DNA of 64,000 bases from Pedobacter psychrotolerans (GTDB lineage Bacteria > Bacteroidota > Bacteroidia > Sphingobacteriales > Sphingobacteriaceae): the NCBI RefSeq assembly GCF_004340665.1, contig NZ_SLWO01000010.1:1-64000 (forward strand), given 5' to 3'. The position numbers and the translations under genes were made by a program. Position 1 is the stretch's first letter; every line of letters begins with the position of its first letter. The notes under the pieces were generated by a model, which was given only the letters and a program-made list of their open reading frames with translations, was not told where the DNA came from and did not search any database. Of this stretch, positions 21,347 to 29,984 are shown in pieces.

Positions 21347-22003
21347 ATGGATTTTTTAGACATACATACACACCAGGCTGCCCAAAAAAAAGGTATCACA
21401 AGTATCCAAAGTTTATCACTAACCAGCGATATTTTCCTGGCCATGCCCAAAACGAAGCCTATTTCAATCGGACTTCACCCCTGGTATGCCACCCTAGATA
21501 AACTGGAGATGCAAATGAAGTATATGAGTGTGTTGGCCAGTCAGCAGAATGTTAAACTAATTGGTGAATGTGGTTTAGATCGGCTAAAAGGTGCGCAAAT
21601 TGAAAATCAAATCTCCATTCTGGAAATACAAATTAAGCTGGCCGAAAAATTAAATAAACCTTTAATTTTGCACTGCGTAAAAGCTTTTTCTGAATTAATA
21701 GAAATTAAAGACCGGCTGAAGGTTAATGTCCCGATGATTATTCACGGCTTTAATAAAAATGAGGCGTTAGGCCTTCAACTACTAAAAAAGGGTTTTTTGT
21801 TATCGTTTGGCACGGCAATTCTGAAAGAAAATTCTGGTGCTTCAAAGCTTATCCGCGACACAGATCTGTTTTTCTTGGAGACCGATGATTCGGGAATACC
21901 AATTGAGGAAATCTATAATGCTGCTGCTAAGTTGAAAAATTGTTCAGTTGATGCACTCAAAGCTTGTATGTTTGCTAACTGGAAAAAATTAGATTTACTG
22001 TAA
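21347..22003 (+). CDS. TatD family metal-dependent hydrolase
   Basis: A 218-residue amidohydrolase-fold protein, a little shorter than E. coli TatD (about 260). Metal ligands of the family are visible: H7 and H9 in DIHTHQ, Glu in GECGLDR, His in LILHCVKA, His in IIHGFN and Asp in LETDDSG. Family members are metal-dependent nucleases acting on 3' ends or mismatched DNA. It is the first gene of a plus-strand run: tcdA follows after 16 bp and the addA-like gene after it. The DNA-repair neighbours fit a nuclease role, by inference. Confidence 0.88.
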   Translation: MDFLDIHTHQAAQKKGITSIQSLSLTSDIFLAMPKTKPISIGLHPWYATLDKLEMQMKYMSVLASQQNVKLIGECGLDRLKGAQIENQISILEIQIKLAEKLNKPLILHCVKAFSELIEIKDRLKVNVPMIIHGFNKNEALGLQLLKKGFLLSFGTAILKENSGASKLIRDTDLFFLETDDSGIPIEEIYNAAAKLKNCSVDALKACMFANWKKLDLL

Positions 22004-22019
22004 ATTCGTATAAAATTAT

Positions 22020-22814
22020 ATGTCAGATGTTTCTTGGCTTTCGCGTTCTGCCCTATTGGTTGGTAATGATGGAATTGAAAAATTGCAGAATAAACATGTC
22101 CTGGTCATTGGCCTGGGTGGTGTAGGTTCTTTTGCTGCAGAATTTATTTGCCGCTCGGGTATTGGTGAAATGACCATTGTAGATGGTGATGTGGTAGATC
22201 CTACTAACCGGAACAGGCAATTACCTGCCTTAGCCACCAATCATGGCGTAAGTAAAGCTGAAATTATGCAGGAGCGATTACTTGCCATAAACCCGGAACT
22301 GAAACTTAATGTCGTAAATACTTTTCTTAGCCCTGAAAAGTGCAGGGAAATTTTAGAATCAAGATTTGATTACATTATGGATTGTATAGATAGTGTGATG
22401 CCAAAGATCACCTTGCTTTCTACTGCTTTAGAAAAAAATATTCCGATTGTAAGCTCAATGGGTGCTGGTGGTAAAATGGACCCGACGAGATTAAGAATTG
22501 CGATGTTACCAGATACTTATCAATGTGTTTTCGCCAGTTATGTTCGAAAAAGATTAAACAAACTCATGAACGCTAGTAAAATCAAAGCTGTGTTCTCTAC
22601 AGAGGAAATGGATAAAAACTCCATGATCATGACGGATGGTAGTAATTTTAAACGATCTGCTTATGGCACGGTTTCGTATCTGCCTGCGGCTTTCGGTGGT
22701 GCCTGTGCATCAGTGGTAATTAGAGATTTGCTAGGCCTTAAAATTGAAATGGCAGAAAGACCAGCAAGGATAAGCCATAAAACATTAGCGAAAAAGAAAA
22801 TCAAAAAAAGTTAA
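22020..22814 (+). CDS. tcdA: tRNA threonylcarbamoyladenosine dehydratase
   Basis: A 264-residue E1-like protein of the ThiF/MoeB superfamily. It shows the nucleotide-binding motif GLGGVGSFAAE, the acidic strand MTIVDGDVVDPTNRNRQ and the later DCIDSV and SSMGAGGKMDPT segments typical of TcdA (CsdL). The enzyme uses ATP to cyclise t6A at position 37 of ANN-decoding tRNAs. Length matches the family (about 268). It lies 16 bp after the tatD-like gene and 8 bp before the addA-like gene, so the three probably share a transcript. Confidence 0.93.
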   Translation: MSDVSWLSRSALLVGNDGIEKLQNKHVLVIGLGGVGSFAAEFICRSGIGEMTIVDGDVVDPTNRNRQLPALATNHGVSKAEIMQERLLAINPELKLNVVNTFLSPEKCREILESRFDYIMDCIDSVMPKITLLSTALEKNIPIVSSMGAGGKMDPTRLRIAMLPDTYQCVFASYVRKRLNKLMNASKIKAVFSTEEMDKNSMIMTDGSNFKRSAYGTVSYLPAAFGGACASVVIRDLLGLKIEMAERPARISHKTLAKKKIKKS

Positions 22815-22822
22815 AAAACACT

Positions 22823-25800
22823 ATGCCCAAACCACTTAAAATACTTCAGGCTTCTGCCGGTTCTGGTAAAACATTCAGTTTAACGGCGCACTATCTGACT
22901 TTACTTTTCTCTGGTGAAAATAAATATCGTGAGATTTTAGCGGTAACCTTTACCAATAAAGCCACAGAAGAAATGAAAACCAGGATTCTGGAAGTTTTAC
23001 TTGGGCTGGCAAAAGGTAATCCCTCAAAAAAAATAGATGATTATCGAAAATTGGTTCTCGTTGCTTATCCTCAATTAAATGCACAGGAACTTCAATTTAA
23101 AGCGGATAAAATTTACCGAAAAATCCTCCATGACTACAGCCGCTTTTCTGTAAGTACCATTGATGGTTTCGTGCAAAAGGTTATCCGTGGCTTCGCTTTT
23201 GAACTCGGACTAAATGCCGATTATAGTTTAGAAATGAATTATGACAAGGTAAAAGATGATCTGGTAAATAAACTGGATGAAGCCTTAGACACTAATCAGC
23301 AACTTTTGCAGTGGATTATAGATTTGGCCATAGAGCGCATTAGCGATAACAAAAGCTGGAATTATAAATTTGAACTCTATAATTTAATAGGTGAGATTTT
23401 CTCCGAACGCTTCCAAATTTTTGAAGATGCGGTAACCGCCTTGGGGCTGGAAAATATTGATGAACTCTTTAAAAAATACATCAGCCTAACCAAAGCAGAA
23501 ATTAAAAATTTTGAAGAGGAAATTATCCGCCTGGCAATGGAAGCCAATGAGGCACTTAATGTTTTGGGGGTAGAAAATGAACATTTTAAGGGAAAATCAA
23601 GAAGTGCCTTAGCCAAAATTATACTGGTAGCGCGTGGCGACTTTTCTAAAGTAGAATCGCTTTTTAATTTAATAGACGAACCAGAAGAGTGGTTTCAGAA
23701 AAATGCAAATTCCCCAGAAGCCTTTGAAGTGGTGAATCCAATTCTTCAGCAAATAAAAAACCATTATTTAACACACTTACCTAATTATAGCCTCGCCATT
23801 GCATTCAATAAAAACTTGTACTATTTAAGGCTGATGCAGGAGATTGCGATGTTACTAAAAGAATATCGTGCAGAGAATGATAACCTTTTAATTAGCGATG
23901 CCCAAAAATTAATATCTGGCATTACAGAAGATGCTGGCGACAATCCATCTTTCATATGGGAAAAAGTAGGAAACCGATATCGCAATTTTCTTTTTGATGA
24001 ATTTCAGGATACCTCAACCAGTCAGTGGGGTAGTTTTAAATCTTTACTTACCAATGCAATGGCCACACCAAGCGAAGATTTGACCGATCATCTAATTGTT
24101 GGCGACACCAAACAATCTATTTACCGATGGAGAAATGGTGACTGGAATATCCTGCATAAACATGCTAAACGCGAAGTGGGTATAGAAAACGTTGTGGAAG
24201 AAAGTCTTGCAGAAAACTACCGCAGCACAGAAAACATCATCACATTTAATAATTTTATCTATCGGTCAATTCCATTAACGCTACAAAACGAACTTAACAC
24301 AAACTTAGCTTCTAAACCAGAAAGTATTGCCAATTGGTGGGCCAACGAGAATTATACCCAAATCATCACCGATATTTATAGTGCTTCCACGCAAAATTTT
24401 GCGGGCAATACCTTAAAGGGAGGCACGATCAAAATTAAAAAATTTGGTAAGGAACATGCTCCCGATGAGGCCCGTTTCACGGAAACTGTATTTAGAGATA
24501 TTGCCTTGAATGACGTGATCGAAGAAATTAAAATTTTAAAAGATCAGCAGAATTATGCCTTGAAGGACATCGCCATTTTAGTGCGGTCTAATAGCGAAGC
24601 TTTACTTACCGTGCGCAAATTGATGGAGCACCATCTTCCTGTTTTATCGGGCGATGCCTTGTTAATTTCGAATAACTCCGCCATTCAACTCATCATTAAT
24701 ACCTTAAAAGTATTAATTGGTTTAGAAGCTCAAAGTGCGCTATATAAGGCAAACTGCATAGCACTTTACCATTCTTTACAGGGCAAAGAACCTGATGCCA
24801 ATCATTACATTAACCTCACCAGCAAGACACTTAATCAGCTTTCTGCAGTATTGCCTTTATCTTTATGCGAAAACTGGCAAAGCTGGCTTCAACTTCCATT
24901 ACCAGAATTGGTAGAGATTTTAATAGAAAGTTATGGCTTAAAAACGCTTACTGCTCACCTGCCCTATCTTTTAGCTTTTAGAGATTTAACCGCAGCAGCA
25001 GGAAAATCAGGAGAAAAAGGAATTATTGCCTTCTTAACCTGGTGGGAAGAAGATGGGGTTAAAAAATCGCTTCCATCACCAGAAGGTGCAGATGCTATCC
25101 AGATCATCACCATCCACAAATCAAAAGGGCTTGCATTCAGAGCAGTTTTTGTTCCCTTCTGCAACTGGGAAATTAAAGGAAAAGCAAATGGAACCTTCTG
25201 GGTATCATCTGAAGAAACAGTTTATAAAGAACTTAAGGGCATTCCGCTGAAATATAATGAAGCCCTGTCTGATTCGGCAATAGCAAAAGCCTATTATGAG
25301 GAATTGCTATACAACAATATGGATGCATTAAATATGCTCTATGTAGCTACCACACGCTCGAAAGATTACCTCTATATCGCTACGATGGCTAAAAAAGAAT
25401 TGAAATTATCCAACATGGGTGATGTTATCAATTTAACTTTTGACCACGAATTTGATGAAAATGGGGTATACGAAATAGTAGATTACATTTCGACGGAAAG
25501 CAAAATTGATGAAAATGACTTTATTGATTTAAAGCATTATCCAACCACCACACGCCTGTCTGAACTTTACATTCCTTCTGAAGAAAAACATTTAAGGCAT
25601 TTGGTTAATATCGAAAAATCTGGCAGGAAAGGCTCTTTACTACATGATATTCTGGCCAATGCCAGTAATGAAACAGAAACAGACAAATACATTACCACCT
25701 TGATTCTGGATGGTATTATACAGGAAGAGGAAAAGGAGCAGCTGAAATCAAAAGTTTTATCGGTATTGGAAAACCCTGATTTAAAAGCTGTTTTAAGCAG

Positions 25801-26041
25801 GGCAACCGGAAGTATAACGGAAAAAAGCATTATTGATACAAAGGGCAAACTTCATCGGCCAGATCGTATTTTATTTCACGAGAATGAAGTAATCATTCTG
25901 GATTATAAATTTACGCTTACAGAAAGCGATAAACATATTGAACAGGTTGAAAATTACAAAAATCTGCTCATGGAGATGGGACACAGCCAGATAAAAACCT
26001 ATTTATTTTACGCCGTTAGCGGTAAATTAAAATTAGTGTAA
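22823..26041 (+). CDS. addA: AddA-like UvrD-type helicase with C-terminal PD-(D/E)XK nuclease
   Basis: A 1,072-residue protein with the superfamily 1A helicase motifs in order: Walker A ASAGSGKT (10-17), TFTNKATEEM, motif II DEFQD (392-396), GDTKQSIYRWR, ENYRST, TIHKSKGLAF and LYVATTRSK. The C-terminus carries RecB-type nuclease residues: H in SLLHDIL, D in RPDRIL and D1027-Y-K1029. AddA pairs with AddB to resect double-strand breaks for RecA. The AddB-like partner lies one gene downstream. The stop is followed after one base by the ATG of the DUF1016 gene, so the two are translationally close. It is shorter than B. subtilis AddA (about 1,230). Confidence 0.92.
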   Translation: MPKPLKILQASAGSGKTFSLTAHYLTLLFSGENKYREILAVTFTNKATEEMKTRILEVLLGLAKGNPSKKIDDYRKLVLVAYPQLNAQELQFKADKIYRKILHDYSRFSVSTIDGFVQKVIRGFAFELGLNADYSLEMNYDKVKDDLVNKLDEALDTNQQLLQWIIDLAIERISDNKSWNYKFELYNLIGEIFSERFQIFEDAVTALGLENIDELFKKYISLTKAEIKNFEEEIIRLAMEANEALNVLGVENEHFKGKSRSALAKIILVARGDFSKVESLFNLIDEPEEWFQKNANSPEAFEVVNPILQQIKNHYLTHLPNYSLAIAFNKNLYYLRLMQEIAMLLKEYRAENDNLLISDAQKLISGITEDAGDNPSFIWEKVGNRYRNFLFDEFQDTSTSQWGSFKSLLTNAMATPSEDLTDHLIVGDTKQSIYRWRNGDWNILHKHAKREVGIENVVEESLAENYRSTENIITFNNFIYRSIPLTLQNELNTNLASKPESIANWWANENYTQIITDIYSASTQNFAGNTLKGGTIKIKKFGKEHAPDEARFTETVFRDIALNDVIEEIKILKDQQNYALKDIAILVRSNSEALLTVRKLMEHHLPVLSGDALLISNNSAIQLIINTLKVLIGLEAQSALYKANCIALYHSLQGKEPDANHYINLTSKTLNQLSAVLPLSLCENWQSWLQLPLPELVEILIESYGLKTLTAHLPYLLAFRDLTAAAGKSGEKGIIAFLTWWEEDGVKKSLPSPEGADAIQIITIHKSKGLAFRAVFVPFCNWEIKGKANGTFWVSSEETVYKELKGIPLKYNEALSDSAIAKAYYEELLYNNMDALNMLYVATTRSKDYLYIATMAKKELKLSNMGDVINLTFDHEFDENGVYEIVDYISTESKIDENDFIDLKHYPTTTRLSELYIPSEEKHLRHLVNIEKSGRKGSLLHDILANASNETETDKYITTLILDGIIQEEEKEQLKSKVLSVLENPDLKAVLSRATGSITEKSIIDTKGKLHRPDRILFHENEVIILDYKFTLTESDKHIEQVENYKNLLMEMGHSQIKTYLFYAVSGKLKLV

Positions 26042-26042
26042 G

Positions 26043-27113
26043 ATGGAAGAAATAAACGCTTTATATGGAAATGTACTTGATATACTGAATAAGTATAGAA
26101 CCTATACTTACAAGGCAATTAATACGGCCATGGTTATTTCATATTGGCAAATAGGTAAAGCAATAGTTGAAAATGAACAGGGTGGGAATGTTAAAGCATC
26201 ATATGGTGATAAGATTCTACAATCGCTATCAAAAAAACTAAGTGTTGATTTCGGTAAAGGTTTTTCCTATTCCAACCTAAGAAATTTCCGCCAATTTTAC
26301 CTAACTTATCAAGATGATCAGATTTGCTACGCAGTGCGTAGCAAATCTGAAAATACAGAAGTTCAAGACAATCATTCAAATTATGTACTTCGTAGTAATC
26401 TGAGCTGGACACATCATCGCTTAATTATGAGAGTTGAGAATGCACAGGCAAGAAAATATTATCTTAAAGAAGCAGAGAGGCAAAATTGGAGTACGAGAGA
26501 ATTGGAGCGGAATATAAACTCCTCATATTTTCAACGAATTTTAACTCATCAAAATGAAGTAAAAAAACCAGGTCTTAACAATCAGTCTTCGGAAGATTTT
26601 ATTAAAGATCCATATGTTTTAGAATTTTTGAAAATTGACGAATCATCCTTTACAAATGAAAAAGAAATAGAAGCGAGAATAATTAATCACTTACAACAAT
26701 TTCTATTAGAGCTAGGAAAAGGTTTTTCATTTGTTGGAAGGCAATTTAGAATAAGTACAGAAACAAGTCACTTTTATATAGATTTAGTATTTTACAACTA
26801 CATTTTAAAATGTTTCGTACTGTTTGACTTAAAAACTACCAAATTAACACATCAAGATGTAGGGCAAATGGATATGTACATTAAAATGTTTGACGATCTA
26901 AAGAAACAAGATAATGACAATCAAACAATTGGCATAATTCTTTGCACAGACACTGAAGAAACTGTTGTAAAATACTCTATGTTAAATGATAGCAAACAAT
27001 TATTTGCTTCCAAATATCAAATGTATTTACCAACCGAAAAACAATTAGCAGACTGGATTTATAAAGATAAAGCAATCATCGAAGCTCAACTAAAAAACGA
27101 AAGTAACGAGTAA
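26043..27113 (+). CDS. DUF1016 / YhcG-type PD-(D/E)XK nuclease domain protein
   Basis: A 356-residue protein with the two-part DUF1016 layout. The N-terminal helical part (about 1-160) contains FSYSNLRNFRQFYLTY, then LSWTHHRLIMRVENAQARKYYLKEA. The C-terminal nuclease domain has D247 in FYIDLVFYN and D262-L-K264 as the D...(D/E)xK core, followed by QMDMYI. Family members elsewhere are linked to restriction-modification islands and plasmids. Here it sits 1 bp after the addA-like and 15 bp before the addB-like gene, an unusual place. Residues about 90-120 form an extra loop rich in Asn and Ser, encoded by a palindrome. It looks AT-richer than its flanks, hinting at insertion. A role with AddAB is only inferred. 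Confidence 0.9.
   Translation: MEEINALYGNVLDILNKYRTYTYKAINTAMVISYWQIGKAIVENEQGGNVKASYGDKILQSLSKKLSVDFGKGFSYSNLRNFRQFYLTYQDDQICYAVRSKSENTEVQDNHSNYVLRSNLSWTHHRLIMRVENAQARKYYLKEAERQNWSTRELERNINSSYFQRILTHQNEVKKPGLNNQSSEDFIKDPYVLEFLKIDESSFTNEKEIEARIINHLQQFLLELGKGFSFVGRQFRISTETSHFYIDLVFYNYILKCFVLFDLKTTKLTHQDVGQMDMYIKMFDDLKKQDNDNQTIGIILCTDTEETVVKYSMLNDSKQLFASKYQMYLPTEKQLADWIYKDKAIIEAQLKNESNE
26318..26350. repeat. 33-bp perfect palindrome inside the DUF1016 coding sequence
   Basis: A 16-bp left arm (26318-26333, starting tcagatttgc) and a perfectly complementary 16-bp right arm (26335-26350) flank one central base (g at 26334). It encodes the loop ...QICYAVRSKS... just before the conserved LSWTHHR segment. 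Confidence 0.95.
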
Positions 27114-27128
27114 TATTTAAATAATAAT

Positions 27129-29984
27129 ATGAAACCCTTTTTACAAGAAGTTGCTGAAGACTTAATAGAAAAATTTGGCTCGGATTTGCAACACTGCGCA
27201 ATCGTTTTCAATAATAAACGTCCATCTGCTTATATGCAGAAATACCTGGCTGATATTATTGGCAAGCCTTTTTTTAGTCCGGCATTTTATACCATCCAAG
27301 AGTTTTTTGCTACTGCTACACCTTATAAAATTGCCGATTTTTACCTGCAGTTTTTTACACTTCATAAAATTTACAACCAGTTACTGACCGAAGAAAAACT
27401 GGAGCTCATTTCCAGTCATAAATTTTTCCCTTTAGCAAAGATAATTTTAAGCGACTTTACACAAATAGATAACGATCTGGTTGATGCCGGAAAACTCTAT
27501 CGTGATTTGGAAGATATCTCCGTCATCAATAAAGATTTCGATTACCTCAGCCCAGAACAATATCAATTTCTGGCTCAATTCTGGACATCTTATTCCGAAG
27601 GCAAGCACAAGAAGCAACAAGAGCTTTTTATTAAAATGTGGCGCCGGATGCCAAAGCTTTATCACAAATTTCATGCTTTATTAAAGGAACAGGATTATCT
27701 AACCAATGGTTATGTTTATCGGCACCTGGCCGAAGAAAAAGAGCATGCTAAAGATTTACCTGTAAACTTTGAAAAAGGCAAAATCATTTTTGTTGGTTTC
27801 AATGCCTTAACCAGCGCAGAGGCAAAAATTTTCACACAACTTCAGGAGGCAAATCAAGCTTTATTTTATTTCGATGCCGATGATTATTACGTGAATGATC
27901 CTTTACAGGAAGCAGGATTATTTTTAAGGAAAAACCTGAATCAACTCGGCTTGAAAAATGTATTCGAAAACAAACCCAGCCTGATGAAAACCGAAGAACA
28001 TCAGGTGAATGTTTTTAAAGTTCAGGGGCAATCGGCACAGGCAAAAATCCTGAATAATATACTGGAAGATGATTATGCTGAAAGCAATGAAATAGGCTCA
28101 ACTGTAGTGGTTCTGGCTGATGAAAGCCTGTTATTACCTGCTTTGCAAACAATCCCGACTTCTTATCATGGCAAAGATATCGACCTGAATGTAACCATGG
28201 GTTTTGCTTTATCTACATCCAGTATTTTTGGCCTGGCAGATTTATGGTTTTCATCTCAATTGGAAATTACACATACCGGAAAGATTTCCTACAAAAACGT
28301 GGAGGCTTTTTTAACCCACCCGCTTACGGGCCTGAGCCATAAAATTCGTGATAAAATTCTGACTGCCATTTTGAAAGAAAACGAGGTAGAAATTGCACAT
28401 GAAAGGCTTTTAAGGCAAAGCGGGTTGTTTGAAGTGTTCTATAAAAAAATTGATCATCCAAAACAGGTTGTTCCATACCTGCTGGAAGTGCTGGATTTCA
28501 TTTTAACCAGGTTATCAAATGCTAAAACGCTCAAGAAAATTGATGCAGAGCTTTTTGTGAAAACCATACAGGAATTAAACCGGCTGCATGATACTTTTGG
28601 CAAGCATATCGGTAATGAAGAAATTCAGTTCGTTATCTATCTGGTTCAAAAATCGTTACAAGCTATTGCTGTGCCCCTTTCCGGGGATCCATTAAATGGG
28701 ATTCAATTAATGGGTTTGCTCGAAACCCGGAACTTAAATTTCGATAAGGTGGTGATTTTAGGTTTTAATGAAGGGATTATTCCGAAATCTTCCATTGGCA
28801 ATAGTTTTATTCCTGATTCTATTCGCCGGGTATACGGTTTGCCTGTTTTAGAAAATCTTGATGCCATCTCCTCATACATGGTTTACCGTTTAATGCAAAG
28901 GGCAAAAAATATCAACTTTGTTTATAATAGTTTAACTGATGAAAGTACAACTGGCGAAGCGAGCAGAATTTTAAAACAACTGGAGTATGAAAGCGGATTC
29001 GGTTTTACTTATCATGAACTTAATCTGGATGTAAAAACAGAACCTTTTAAAGAAGTTCGCATCGAAAAAACCAATAATGTTTTTATCCAGGAAACCCTTC
29101 AAAAATACCTCGATAAAAAGAAAGTACTTTCGCCATCTGCCTTAACACAATACATTTCCAATCCAATCGATTTTTTCTTCAACTACATCGCTGGGATTAA
29201 AGAACCAAAAGAAGTGAGTGCCGTTGTAGAGGCGAACGAAATTGGTTCTATTTTACACAAAGTGATGGAGTACTTTTATCAGGATTTGATGAAAGCTGAA
29301 ATTACTTTGGAACGAATTAAGGCGAAAAGGAAGCAGATACCTGCACTTATTGAAAAAGCTTTTAATGCTGTAATGTTTAATCATCCTGATAAAGTGATGG
29401 AGTATAAAGGCATGCAAAAAGTTATCCTGTCAATTGTTGATGCCTACGTAAACATTATTGTGAACCAGGATGAATCGCAAACACCTTTTCATATTATCAG
29501 TTTAGAACAGAAGGTAGAAGCAGAGATTAATTTCCCTTTAAATGGCAAGGATGCCAGTGTTAAAATTTTCGGTTATATTGATCGGGTTGATATAAAAGAT
29601 GGGGTGACTAAAATTGTTGATTACAAAACCGGAAGTGATAAATTAACTTTTAAAGATGTGACAGAACTTTTTAATTCAGATGGCAAACACATCAACAAAG
29701 CATTGGTTCAAACCTTACTTTACACTTATGCCTATGAACAGTTTTCGGGTAAAACTTTTGTTGAGCCGAATTTGTATGTTGTTAAAACCATGGCTGTGGA
29801 TGGTGTTTGGTTCAAATCTGGAAGACAAACGCTTTCTGGTGAATACCTGGAAGAAATTAAACCTGAATTTTTAGCAGAACTTAGAAAAAAACTGACTGAG
29901 CTTTTTGAATCGCCATATTTTGTTGCAAGTGCCGTGGAAGATAATTACAAATACTCTATTTACAAAACGCTGTTCGGGAAGTAA
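27129..29984 (+). CDS. addB: AddB-like PD-(D/E)XK nuclease family protein, no Fe-S cysteines
   Basis: A 951-residue protein. The N-terminal two-thirds align in style with inactivated AddB helicase domains (no Walker A; late motifs LMGLLETRNLNFDKVVILGFNEGIIP present). The C-terminal nuclease starts at SPSALTQYISNPIDFFFNY (about 667) and carries H in GSILHKVM, D in YIDRVD and D831-Y-K833. Classical AddB has four cysteines holding a 4Fe-4S cluster around the nuclease domain. This protein has a single cysteine (C23), and the usual CPF position is NPI, so the cluster is absent. Together with AddA it should process DNA ends. It follows the DUF1016 gene by 15 bp and ends the operon. Confidence 0.87.
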   Translation: MKPFLQEVAEDLIEKFGSDLQHCAIVFNNKRPSAYMQKYLADIIGKPFFSPAFYTIQEFFATATPYKIADFYLQFFTLHKIYNQLLTEEKLELISSHKFFPLAKIILSDFTQIDNDLVDAGKLYRDLEDISVINKDFDYLSPEQYQFLAQFWTSYSEGKHKKQQELFIKMWRRMPKLYHKFHALLKEQDYLTNGYVYRHLAEEKEHAKDLPVNFEKGKIIFVGFNALTSAEAKIFTQLQEANQALFYFDADDYYVNDPLQEAGLFLRKNLNQLGLKNVFENKPSLMKTEEHQVNVFKVQGQSAQAKILNNILEDDYAESNEIGSTVVVLADESLLLPALQTIPTSYHGKDIDLNVTMGFALSTSSIFGLADLWFSSQLEITHTGKISYKNVEAFLTHPLTGLSHKIRDKILTAILKENEVEIAHERLLRQSGLFEVFYKKIDHPKQVVPYLLEVLDFILTRLSNAKTLKKIDAELFVKTIQELNRLHDTFGKHIGNEEIQFVIYLVQKSLQAIAVPLSGDPLNGIQLMGLLETRNLNFDKVVILGFNEGIIPKSSIGNSFIPDSIRRVYGLPVLENLDAISSYMVYRLMQRAKNINFVYNSLTDESTTGEASRILKQLEYESGFGFTYHELNLDVKTEPFKEVRIEKTNNVFIQETLQKYLDKKKVLSPSALTQYISNPIDFFFNYIAGIKEPKEVSAVVEANEIGSILHKVMEYFYQDLMKAEITLERIKAKRKQIPALIEKAFNAVMFNHPDKVMEYKGMQKVILSIVDAYVNIIVNQDESQTPFHIISLEQKVEAEINFPLNGKDASVKIFGYIDRVDIKDGVTKIVDYKTGSDKLTFKDVTELFNSDGKHINKALVQTLLYTYAYEQFSGKTFVEPNLYVVKTMAVDGVWFKSGRQTLSGEYLEEIKPEFLAELRKKLTELFESPYFVASAVEDNYKYSIYKTLFGK

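What the first reader, a model, noticed from the sequence alone, without database searches (positions are those of the whole stretch)
26043..27113. DUF1016 nuclease gene embedded between addA-like and addB-like genes
A PD-(D/E)XK protein of the YhcG/DUF1016 family sits 1 bp after the AddA-like stop and 15 bp before the AddB-like start, so the three are almost certainly one transcript. AddA and AddB are obligate partners and their genes normally touch. DUF1016 genes are better known from restriction-modification islands. Either a mobile gene landed cleanly in the operon, or a third nuclease works with this AddAB-like enzyme. The catalytic core D247...D262-x-K264 looks intact.
Basis: partly seen in the sequence, partly recalled or inferred. 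Interest (0 to 1): 0.7.

Follow-up and report, generated by a model that had tools for sequence, protein, structure and literature searches.

The report
Mobile nuclease gene inside recombination operon
A stand-alone nuclease gene has slipped between two partner DNA-repair genes in some soil bacteria and passes between species at that spot; relatives of the same gene sit beside several other everyday genes, so it looks like a travelling passenger rather than a missing third part of the repair enzyme.

Summary
In detail: an intact DUF1016/YhcG gene lies 1 bp after addA and 15 bp before addB. It is not a third AddAB subunit. Of 142 genomes of the genus (Pedobacter, inferred) with both genes, 103 have under 60 bp between them. 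Seven carry this DUF1016 in the gap, two clear remnants, one a distant DUF1016, 11 unrelated genes, one only repeats. A relative with 98% identical AddA/AddB carries a Schlafen-like gene there, imported with about 60 bp of addB. Carriers are patchy on the AddAB tree. In 11 of 11 within-group carrier pairs DUF1016 has the lowest dS of five neighbouring genes (2 of 10 in saturated between-group pairs): it moved without its neighbours. Other DUF1016 lineages sit in seven further recurrent junctions, such as argF'|argB and gcvT|comB, mostly one clade per junction. There inheritance is mostly vertical under purifying selection. Best reading: an operon-embedded, occasionally exchanged nuclease cassette, probably defensive. 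Homing-like self-spread is not excluded. The junction is no exceptional hotspot.

The parts
21347..22003 (+). tatD-like hydrolase gene, upstream neighbour; the tatD|tcdA junction holds another DUF1016 lineage in 4 relatives
   Evidence: ORF (name recalled); junction survey
22020..22814 (+). tcdA-like (ThiF family) gene
   Evidence: PF00899 E 4.3e-41
22823..26041 (+). AddA-like helicase-nuclease gene
   Evidence: UvrD-helicase and UvrD_C; RecB-like/AddA models below cut-off
26042..26042 (+). 1-bp gap between addA stop and DUF1016 start
26043..27113 (+). DUF1016/YhcG nuclease cassette, 356 aa, no other + strand ORF of 80 aa or more and no recognisable promoter in the insert
26073..26537 (+). DUF1016_N helical domain (residues 11-165) with weak HTH/ParB-like similarity
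   Evidence: PF17761 and sub-threshold PF17762; weak ParB/Noc Foldseek rows
26595..27044 (+). YhcG_C PD-(D/E)XK nuclease domain (residues 185-334)
   Evidence: PF06250; NucS/EndoMS-like fold
26781..26834 (+). catalytic core D247 (26781-26783), D262 (26826-26828), K264 (26832-26834)
   Evidence: codons read
27114..27128 (+). 15-bp gap before addB
27129..29984 (+). AddB-like nuclease gene
   Evidence: PDDEXK_1 E 3e-25

Best explanation
The gene is a stand-alone, single-gene nuclease cassette embedded in the addA|addB junction, not a component of AddAB. SHOWN: it sits at the translation start of addB, is patchy among close relatives, exists also as decayed remnants, and in within-group carrier pairs has a younger common ancestor than its flanking genes, so it has passed between species at this fixed site. 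INFERRED: it is translated from the addA-addB message (no recognisable promoter of its own) and moves by homologous recombination between the conserved end of addA and start of addB. INFERRED, most likely role: a host-beneficial DNA endonuclease acting on foreign DNA, because related lineages at other junctions are mostly inherited vertically under strong purifying selection.
For: Gap under 60 bp in 103 of 142 genomes; G056 (AddA 92%, AddB 93% identical) has a 5-bp gap, G073 (98%) a different gene. Patchy carriers on the AddAB tree, interleaved with empties. Remnants G104 (508 bp) and G112 (415 bp) keep both ends of the gene. dS of DUF1016 lowest of TatD, TcdA, addA, DUF1016 and addB in 11 of 11 within-group carrier pairs, e.g. 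G000-G082 0.16 vs 1.01-1.13 (TatD saturated), G085-G041 0.07 vs 0.95-1.08. dN/dS 0.06-0.12 in those pairs. GC 30.7-34.1% vs 32.7-39.1% in the flanks. A recombination tract is visible where the slot was refilled in G073. Other DUF1016 lineages at five other junctions: dN/dS medians 0.045-0.097, dS ratio to flank medians 0.85-1.10. PADLOC's best model is the defence candidate PDC-S02 (E 1.4e-130).
Against: No activity, transcript or phage data. PDC-S02 is a candidate label only; the papers were seen as a listing, not read. In the 10 between-group pairs (G000 or G082 against the other five) dS is saturated or above 1.3 and DUF1016 is lowest in only 2 of 10. Flank footprints for the DUF1016 transfers themselves are weak: the first 30 nt of addB are 93-100% identical in all 13 pairs printed, including pairs that share no cassette; only the Schlafen import in G073 has a clear tract. 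Seven carriers are a small sample and the dS pairs share genomes. The purifying-selection figures at other junctions come from sets from which shortened copies had been left out (see full report).
Confidence: 0.68

Rival explanations
1. Homing-like selfish nuclease: the DUF1016 protein cuts the cassette-free addA|addB junction (or nearby) and is copied into it by recombination repair, as free-standing homing endonucleases of T4-like phages do.
For: PD-(D/E)XK nuclease with a weakly HTH-like part; mostly one clade per junction; intact, decayed and empty alleles side by side at two sites (addA|addB; tatD|tcdA); cassette younger than flanks in within-group pairs. T4 free-standing endonucleases lie between conserved genes and some replace others at the same place (PMC2988022, passages and one reference title seen).
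Against: The Schlafen-like cassette shows the same pattern (nt 89% vs 75.5% for addB) without a DUF1016 nuclease. At five other junctions the full-length DUF1016 genes are mostly about as old as their flank and under purifying selection, which pure selfish spread does not predict. Whether a target-recognition segment varies between sites is unsettled: the N parts are 37-40% and the nuclease 48% identical between sites, but the variable stretch 95-118 could not be compared between sites.
Confidence: 0.2
2. Third subunit or regulator of AddAB: the nuclease works with the AddA-like and AddB-like proteins.
For: Tight same-strand spacing with no recognisable own promoter; intact catalytic residues under purifying selection; a second, distant DUF1016 entered the same junction in G036.
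Against: 103 of 142 genomes have under 60 bp in the gap; none of 17 other-genus genomes inspected has a match to this protein there; AddAB stays where the cassette is decayed or another gene fills the slot; DUF1016 relatives are equally tight at argF'|argB and gcvT|comB.
Confidence: 0.05
3. The addA|addB junction is a special hotspot that attracts defence cargo.
For: 22 of 142 genomes have more than 200 bp in the gap, with about eight kinds of content.
Against: The argF'|argB junction is at least as variable: 46 of 138 genomes have 200 bp or more (contents identified in only some). Several cargo genes at addA|addB are not defence-like (outer-membrane protein, PAD_porph, small unidentified proteins).
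Confidence: 0.07

Closest known systems
YhcG / DUF1016 family (PF06250 + PF17761; COG4804)
   Same: Both Pfam domains at full strength, invariant PD-(D/E)XK core. PMC1189080 (passages) predicts a nuclease resembling YraN-like Holliday-junction resolvases, role unknown, with no obvious conserved neighbourhood.
   Different: That paper noted a type I restriction context only in Methanosarcina acetivorans; here the gene sits in a recombination operon, and relatives in the genus sit in other recurrent junctions, mostly one clade per junction.
PDC-S02 phage-defence candidate (PADLOC)
   Same: Window protein matches PDLC04807 over residues 3-353, E 1.4e-130; the G036 protein also matches PDC-S02.
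   Different: A single gene between addA and addB, with none of the genes read around it (21347-29984) a defence gene by name. No activity shown.
Free-standing homing endonucleases (Seg/Mob) of T4-like phages
   Same: Single nuclease genes between conserved genes, exchanged by recombination, some replaced by other endonuclease genes at the same place (PMC2988022, passages and one reference title).
   Different: T4 examples are GIY-YIG and HNH, in phages, several with demonstrated cleavage; here PD-(D/E)XK in bacterial chromosomes, cleavage untested, and mostly vertical inheritance at the other junctions.
AddAB / RexAB / RecBCD helicase-nuclease
   Same: The flanking genes encode an AddA-like and an AddB-like protein.
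   Different: The DUF1016 gene is no conserved part of it.

Membership tests
YhcG/DUF1016 | DUF1016_N plus YhcG_C domains over the Pfam cut-offs | tested here: met
   141.7 and 193.7 bits against cut-offs 32.8 and 32.5
YhcG/DUF1016 | D...D/E-x-K catalytic residues | tested here: met
   D247, D262, K264 invariant in 35 sequences; 91 of 92 in the genus set, D or E at 262
AddAB complex component | constant co-occurrence with addA and addB | tested here: not met
   7 intact of 142 genus genomes, 0 of 17 other-genus genomes inspected
AddAB complex component | physical interaction or effect on AddAB activity | not testable with these tools
   needs biochemistry
Free-standing homing endonuclease | nuclease gene between conserved genes, with empty alleles in relatives | tested here: met
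Free-standing homing endonuclease | transfer of the gene apart from its flanks | tested here: met
   lowest dS of five genes in 11 of 11 within-group carrier pairs; 2 of 10 between-group pairs, which are saturated or nearly so
Free-standing homing endonuclease | co-conversion of flanking sequence | tested here: inconclusive
   clear for the Schlafen cassette in G073, weak for DUF1016 pairs
Free-standing homing endonuclease | cleaves the cassette-free allele | not testable with these tools
   needs an in vitro cleavage assay
Free-standing homing endonuclease | spread mainly horizontal | tested here: inconclusive
   met at addA|addB in within-group pairs, not met at five other junctions, where the median dS ratio to the flank is 0.85-1.10
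PDC-S02 defence candidate | match to the PADLOC models | tested here: met
   E 1.4e-130
PDC-S02 defence candidate | protection from phage | not testable with these tools
   needs plaque assays

The most novel reading that the evidence does not exclude
DUF1016 proteins are the bacterial-chromosome counterpart of free-standing homing endonucleases: each clade recognises one gene junction, cuts the cassette-free allele and is copied into it, living off the host operon's transcript and translation start, and is later domesticated (for example for defence), which explains its long vertical persistence at some junctions.
Probability: 0.2. Interest if true: 0.8.

Novelty: new variant of a known kind. 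Interest (0 to 1): 0.52.

Why it matters
Operons of partner genes are usually read as functional units, and a gene between two subunits invites the guess of a third subunit. Here comparative data show that a nuclease family repeatedly occupies start/stop junctions beside core genes (recombination, arginine synthesis, glycine cleavage and others; names from sequence) as single-gene cassettes, mostly one lineage per site, and at the window's site has passed between species without its neighbours. That warns against guilt by association for DUF1016 in this genus and makes a testable system: the same junction exists as empty, intact, decayed and otherwise filled alleles in relatives. The listings of my library searches (most of them capped lists) showed no title or abstract start that describes DUF1016 genes as operon-embedded or mobile in this way; only listings and passages of three papers were seen, and most subscription journals are not held.

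Tried and rejected
Third-subunit reading: rejected by the genus survey. Special-hotspot reading: the argF'|argB control was at least as variable, so not claimed; that control is imperfect because its contents were identified only in some genomes, and the roughly 1030-bp gap shared by many may be another operon gene. The tcdA|addA junction looked loose in the listed coordinates, so it was not used as a tight-junction control. Whole-region transfer as the cause of similar cassettes: rejected for the within-group pairs because tatD, tcdA, addA and addB all have higher dS. GC alone: lower in the cassette, but other inserts are low too, so weak. Structure: the model is moderate (mean pLDDT 76.1, pTM 0.44); Foldseek best hits are NucS/EndoMS nucleases (2vld, E 5.5e-05; 5gke, E 1.7e-04), over about 130 columns (TM-score by query length 0.27), and ParB/Noc rows are weak (E 0.059 and above). 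No sequence relative in the PDB up to E 1. Comparison of domains between sites found no fast-changing N part apart from residues 95-118, which could not be compared between sites. In one search site B (18 rows) and site C (8 rows) came out as not monophyletic because members at the same or the adjoining junction had been left out; with L193 added, site B is monophyletic (support 0.469), and site C with L167, L204 and L207 is too. 'Third remnant' G143 (179 bp) rests on my reading of the first bases; tblastn found no hit there. The 1760-bp and other inserts' ORFs were read from a mechanical ORF list, not gene-called.

Full report
WHAT IS THERE. The window comes from a genome whose genus set holds 145 genomes; named contigs that match in length and place are Pedobacter, so I call the genus Pedobacter by inference. 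The gene 26043-27113 (356 aa) is an intact DUF1016/YhcG protein between an AddA-like gene (22823-26041) and an AddB-like gene (27129-29984), with gaps of 1 and 15 bp. D247, D262 and K264 are invariant in a 35-sequence alignment. The genome holds three PF06250 copies.

THE JUNCTION IN THE GENUS. AddA and AddB were both found in 142 of 145 genomes, always on one contig and strand (in G087, G090, G091 and G139 one of the two was matched in two pieces and I used the piece nearest the junction). The gap is under 60 bp in 103, 60-200 bp in 17 and over 200 bp in 22. Contents of the 22: this DUF1016 intact in 7 (G000, G082, G137, G085, G041, G060, G051); its remnants in 2 (G104, G112); a distant DUF1016 in G036; a Schlafen AlbA_2/HATPase_c_4 gene in 2 (G073 by Pfam, G065 by 95% identity); an outer-membrane beta-barrel gene in 3 (G005 by Pfam, G074 and G087 by similarity, the G087 copy not in one frame); a C5 plus a D12 DNA methyltransferase in G010; GIY-YIG-like ORFs in 3 (G009 by Pfam, G101 and G140 by the same opening residues), G009 also with a PAD_porph gene and an unidentified one; small unidentified proteins in G011 and G028; short repeats in G039. 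Of 50 loci found by a pattern scan of 84,980 species genomes with this protein as query, 8 lie at addA|addB (6 intact, 2 remnants), titled Pedobacter or Sphingobacteriaceae. In 17 genomes of other genera of the family, tblastn with the window protein finds nothing in the addA-addB stretch; 13 have raw gaps of 20-76 bp and 4 have raw gaps of 628-1752 bp. These 17 were picked from the listed rows in which addB gave a row of its own.

HOW IT SITS. In 15 of 61 compared genomes the empty junction reads TAATATGCAG. In 12 of these ATGAAACC follows; in the other 3 (G067, G092, G136) the next codon is ATA or ATT, so there addB most likely starts at the ATG one base after the addA stop. In carriers the DUF1016 ORF starts at that same position (TAATATGGAA and variants) and addB uses the next ATG. 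No -33/-7 promoter of the type recalled for Bacteroidota (TTG, 17-23 bases, TAnnTTTG) occurs on the + strand from 25700 to 27200, whereas both Schlafen cassettes have one just before their gene. Expression from the addA message is therefore likely but inferred.

IT MOVES WITHOUT ITS NEIGHBOURS. On the AddAB tree of 61 genomes the carriers fall in several places among empties. The closest relative, G073 (AddA and AddB 98% identical), has the Schlafen gene instead; its first 60 nt of addB are 73% identical to G000 but 95% to G065, and beyond that the identity to G000 is 90-100%. Its Schlafen gene is 89% identical in nucleotides to that of G065 against 75.5% for addB. For DUF1016, nucleotide identity is 96.3% for G000-G082 against 86.0% for addB, and 98.1% for G085-G041 against 87.0%. 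dS of DUF1016 is the lowest of tatD, tcdA, addA, DUF1016 and addB in all 11 within-group pairs (G000-G082; 10 pairs among G137, G085, G041, G060, G051): 0.07-0.80 against 0.95 or more. In the 10 pairs between the two groups dS is saturated or above 1.3, and DUF1016 is lowest in 2, tatD or tcdA in 6, with 2 ties; these say little. dN/dS of DUF1016 in the 11 pairs is 0.06-0.12, so the protein is kept functional. Against: the local flank signature for DUF1016 transfers is weak, because the first 30 bases of addB are conserved in all 13 pairs printed.

THE FAMILY SITS IN OTHER RECURRENT JUNCTIONS. I examined 95 Pedobacter DUF1016 loci, taken mainly from the upper part of the list, which was itself cut (a sample biased to close relatives). 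57 of 95 fall in eight recurrent junctions (gene names recalled from the sequences). With both neighbours on the same strand: addA|addB 7, DUF2157|yjbQ 8, gcvT|comB 7, argF'|argB 5, tatD|tcdA 4. With a divergent upstream gene, so that DUF1016 leads the downstream gene: yyaL-like|dipeptide epimerase 19, recQ|TolB-amidohydrolase 4. With the downstream gene on the other strand: DUF2157|LysE-like 3. A ninth place with three loci (L171, L173, L177) has both neighbours on the other strand and is not counted. Neighbours of most of the remaining loci were not identified. The recurrent junctions hold one clade each, except that the two DUF2157 junctions share one (printed supports 0.469 to 1.0; only 3 of the 4 tatD|tcdA copies are in the tree). 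The downstream gene is on the same strand and within 20 bp or overlapping in 45 of 94. argF'|argB has DUF1016 in at least 12 of 138 genomes (11 by coordinates, plus a frameshifted copy in G067). At tatD|tcdA, 4 of 57 regions carry DUF1016, two intact and two shortened. In the window's genome the other two copies are at argF'|argB (intact) and at DUF2157|LysE-like (broken by a stop). Outside the genus, contexts include type I restriction genes (L052, L056, L058, L082) and single housekeeping genes (L064, L066, L069, L072, L080) (neighbours named from sequence).

HOST GENE OR SELFISH GENE. At five other junctions the ratio of DUF1016 dS to flank dS has medians 0.85-1.10 and dN/dS medians 0.045-0.097. 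Rows dropped: of 19 epimerase loci 17 were used (L193, shortened, and L169 left out), of 8 yjbQ loci 7 (L204, split, left out), and argF'|argB used 5 of at least 12 carriers; only pairs below saturation count (for the ratio 28 of 136 epimerase pairs). So the sets favour intact copies. Some pairs do look transferred: DUF1016 dS is under half the flank dS in 25 of 136, 3 of 21, 0 of 21, 1 of 10 and 1 of 6 pairs at the five sites (many of the 25 have a saturated flank). Long, mostly vertical maintenance under constraint suggests a benefit to the host, so I favour a defence-type nuclease (PADLOC candidate PDC-S02) over a purely selfish one. The addA|addB lineage is the more mobile one, and homing-like spread there is not excluded.

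CONTROL. The argF'|argB junction has 200 bp or more in 46 of 138 genomes (28 with 700 or more), so addA|addB, with over 200 bp in 22 of 142, is not an exceptional hotspot.

KNOWN OR NOT. PMC1189080 (passages) places YhcG among PD-(D/E)XK nucleases and found no obvious conserved neighbourhood. PMC2988022 (passages) describes free-standing homing endonucleases between conserved T4 genes, the closest analogue in behaviour. PMC1193525 (passages) treats the distribution and co-occurrence of AddAB. Nothing in the listings reports DUF1016 genes as operon-embedded or exchanged cassettes; these are listings, most of them capped.

VERDICT. The wider pattern, one nuclease family embedded mostly clade by clade in recurrent junctions of core genes, is the interesting part.

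Noticed in passing
L272 (G056) and L273 (G067), arginine operon: Four-helix-bundle genes (TIGR02436 in the two L272 copies; similar ORFs in L273) sit in two further junctions of the same gene run that carries DUF1016 between argF' and argB: a second family of embedded single genes.
   Followed up: partly
G000:C1:26412-27362 (L167): The window's genome carries another DUF1016 copy beside a DUF2157-like gene, interrupted by one stop codon; the G082 copy at this place (L172, 329 aa) is intact and the G073 copy is split.
   Followed up: partly
L102 (G024), L098 (G039), and G131: Insertions of 159-288 bp at addA|addB contain a recurring sequence of the kind GATTGCTTCGTGCCTCGCAATGACG, with what looks like its reverse complement nearby, resembling a small interspersed element.
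   Followed up: no
L085 (G087), around 2076-2091: addA of G087 is split into two reading frames while addB is intact; real or an assembly error.
   Followed up: no
order survey, genus g3 of the same family: The g3 genomes shown gave no AddA/AddB match at E 1e-6, unlike g2 (53 further genomes without a match were not listed), so AddAB may be missing or very diverged in that genus.
   Followed up: no
L089 (G073) and L090 (G065): Schlafen AlbA_2/HATPase_c_4 cassettes carry their own promoter-like sequence and repeat-like stretches after the gene, unlike the DUF1016 cassette.
   Followed up: partly
L262, L263, L264, L265: In four other-genus genomes the raw addA-addB gap is 628-1752 bp with unidentified ORFs.
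   Followed up: no
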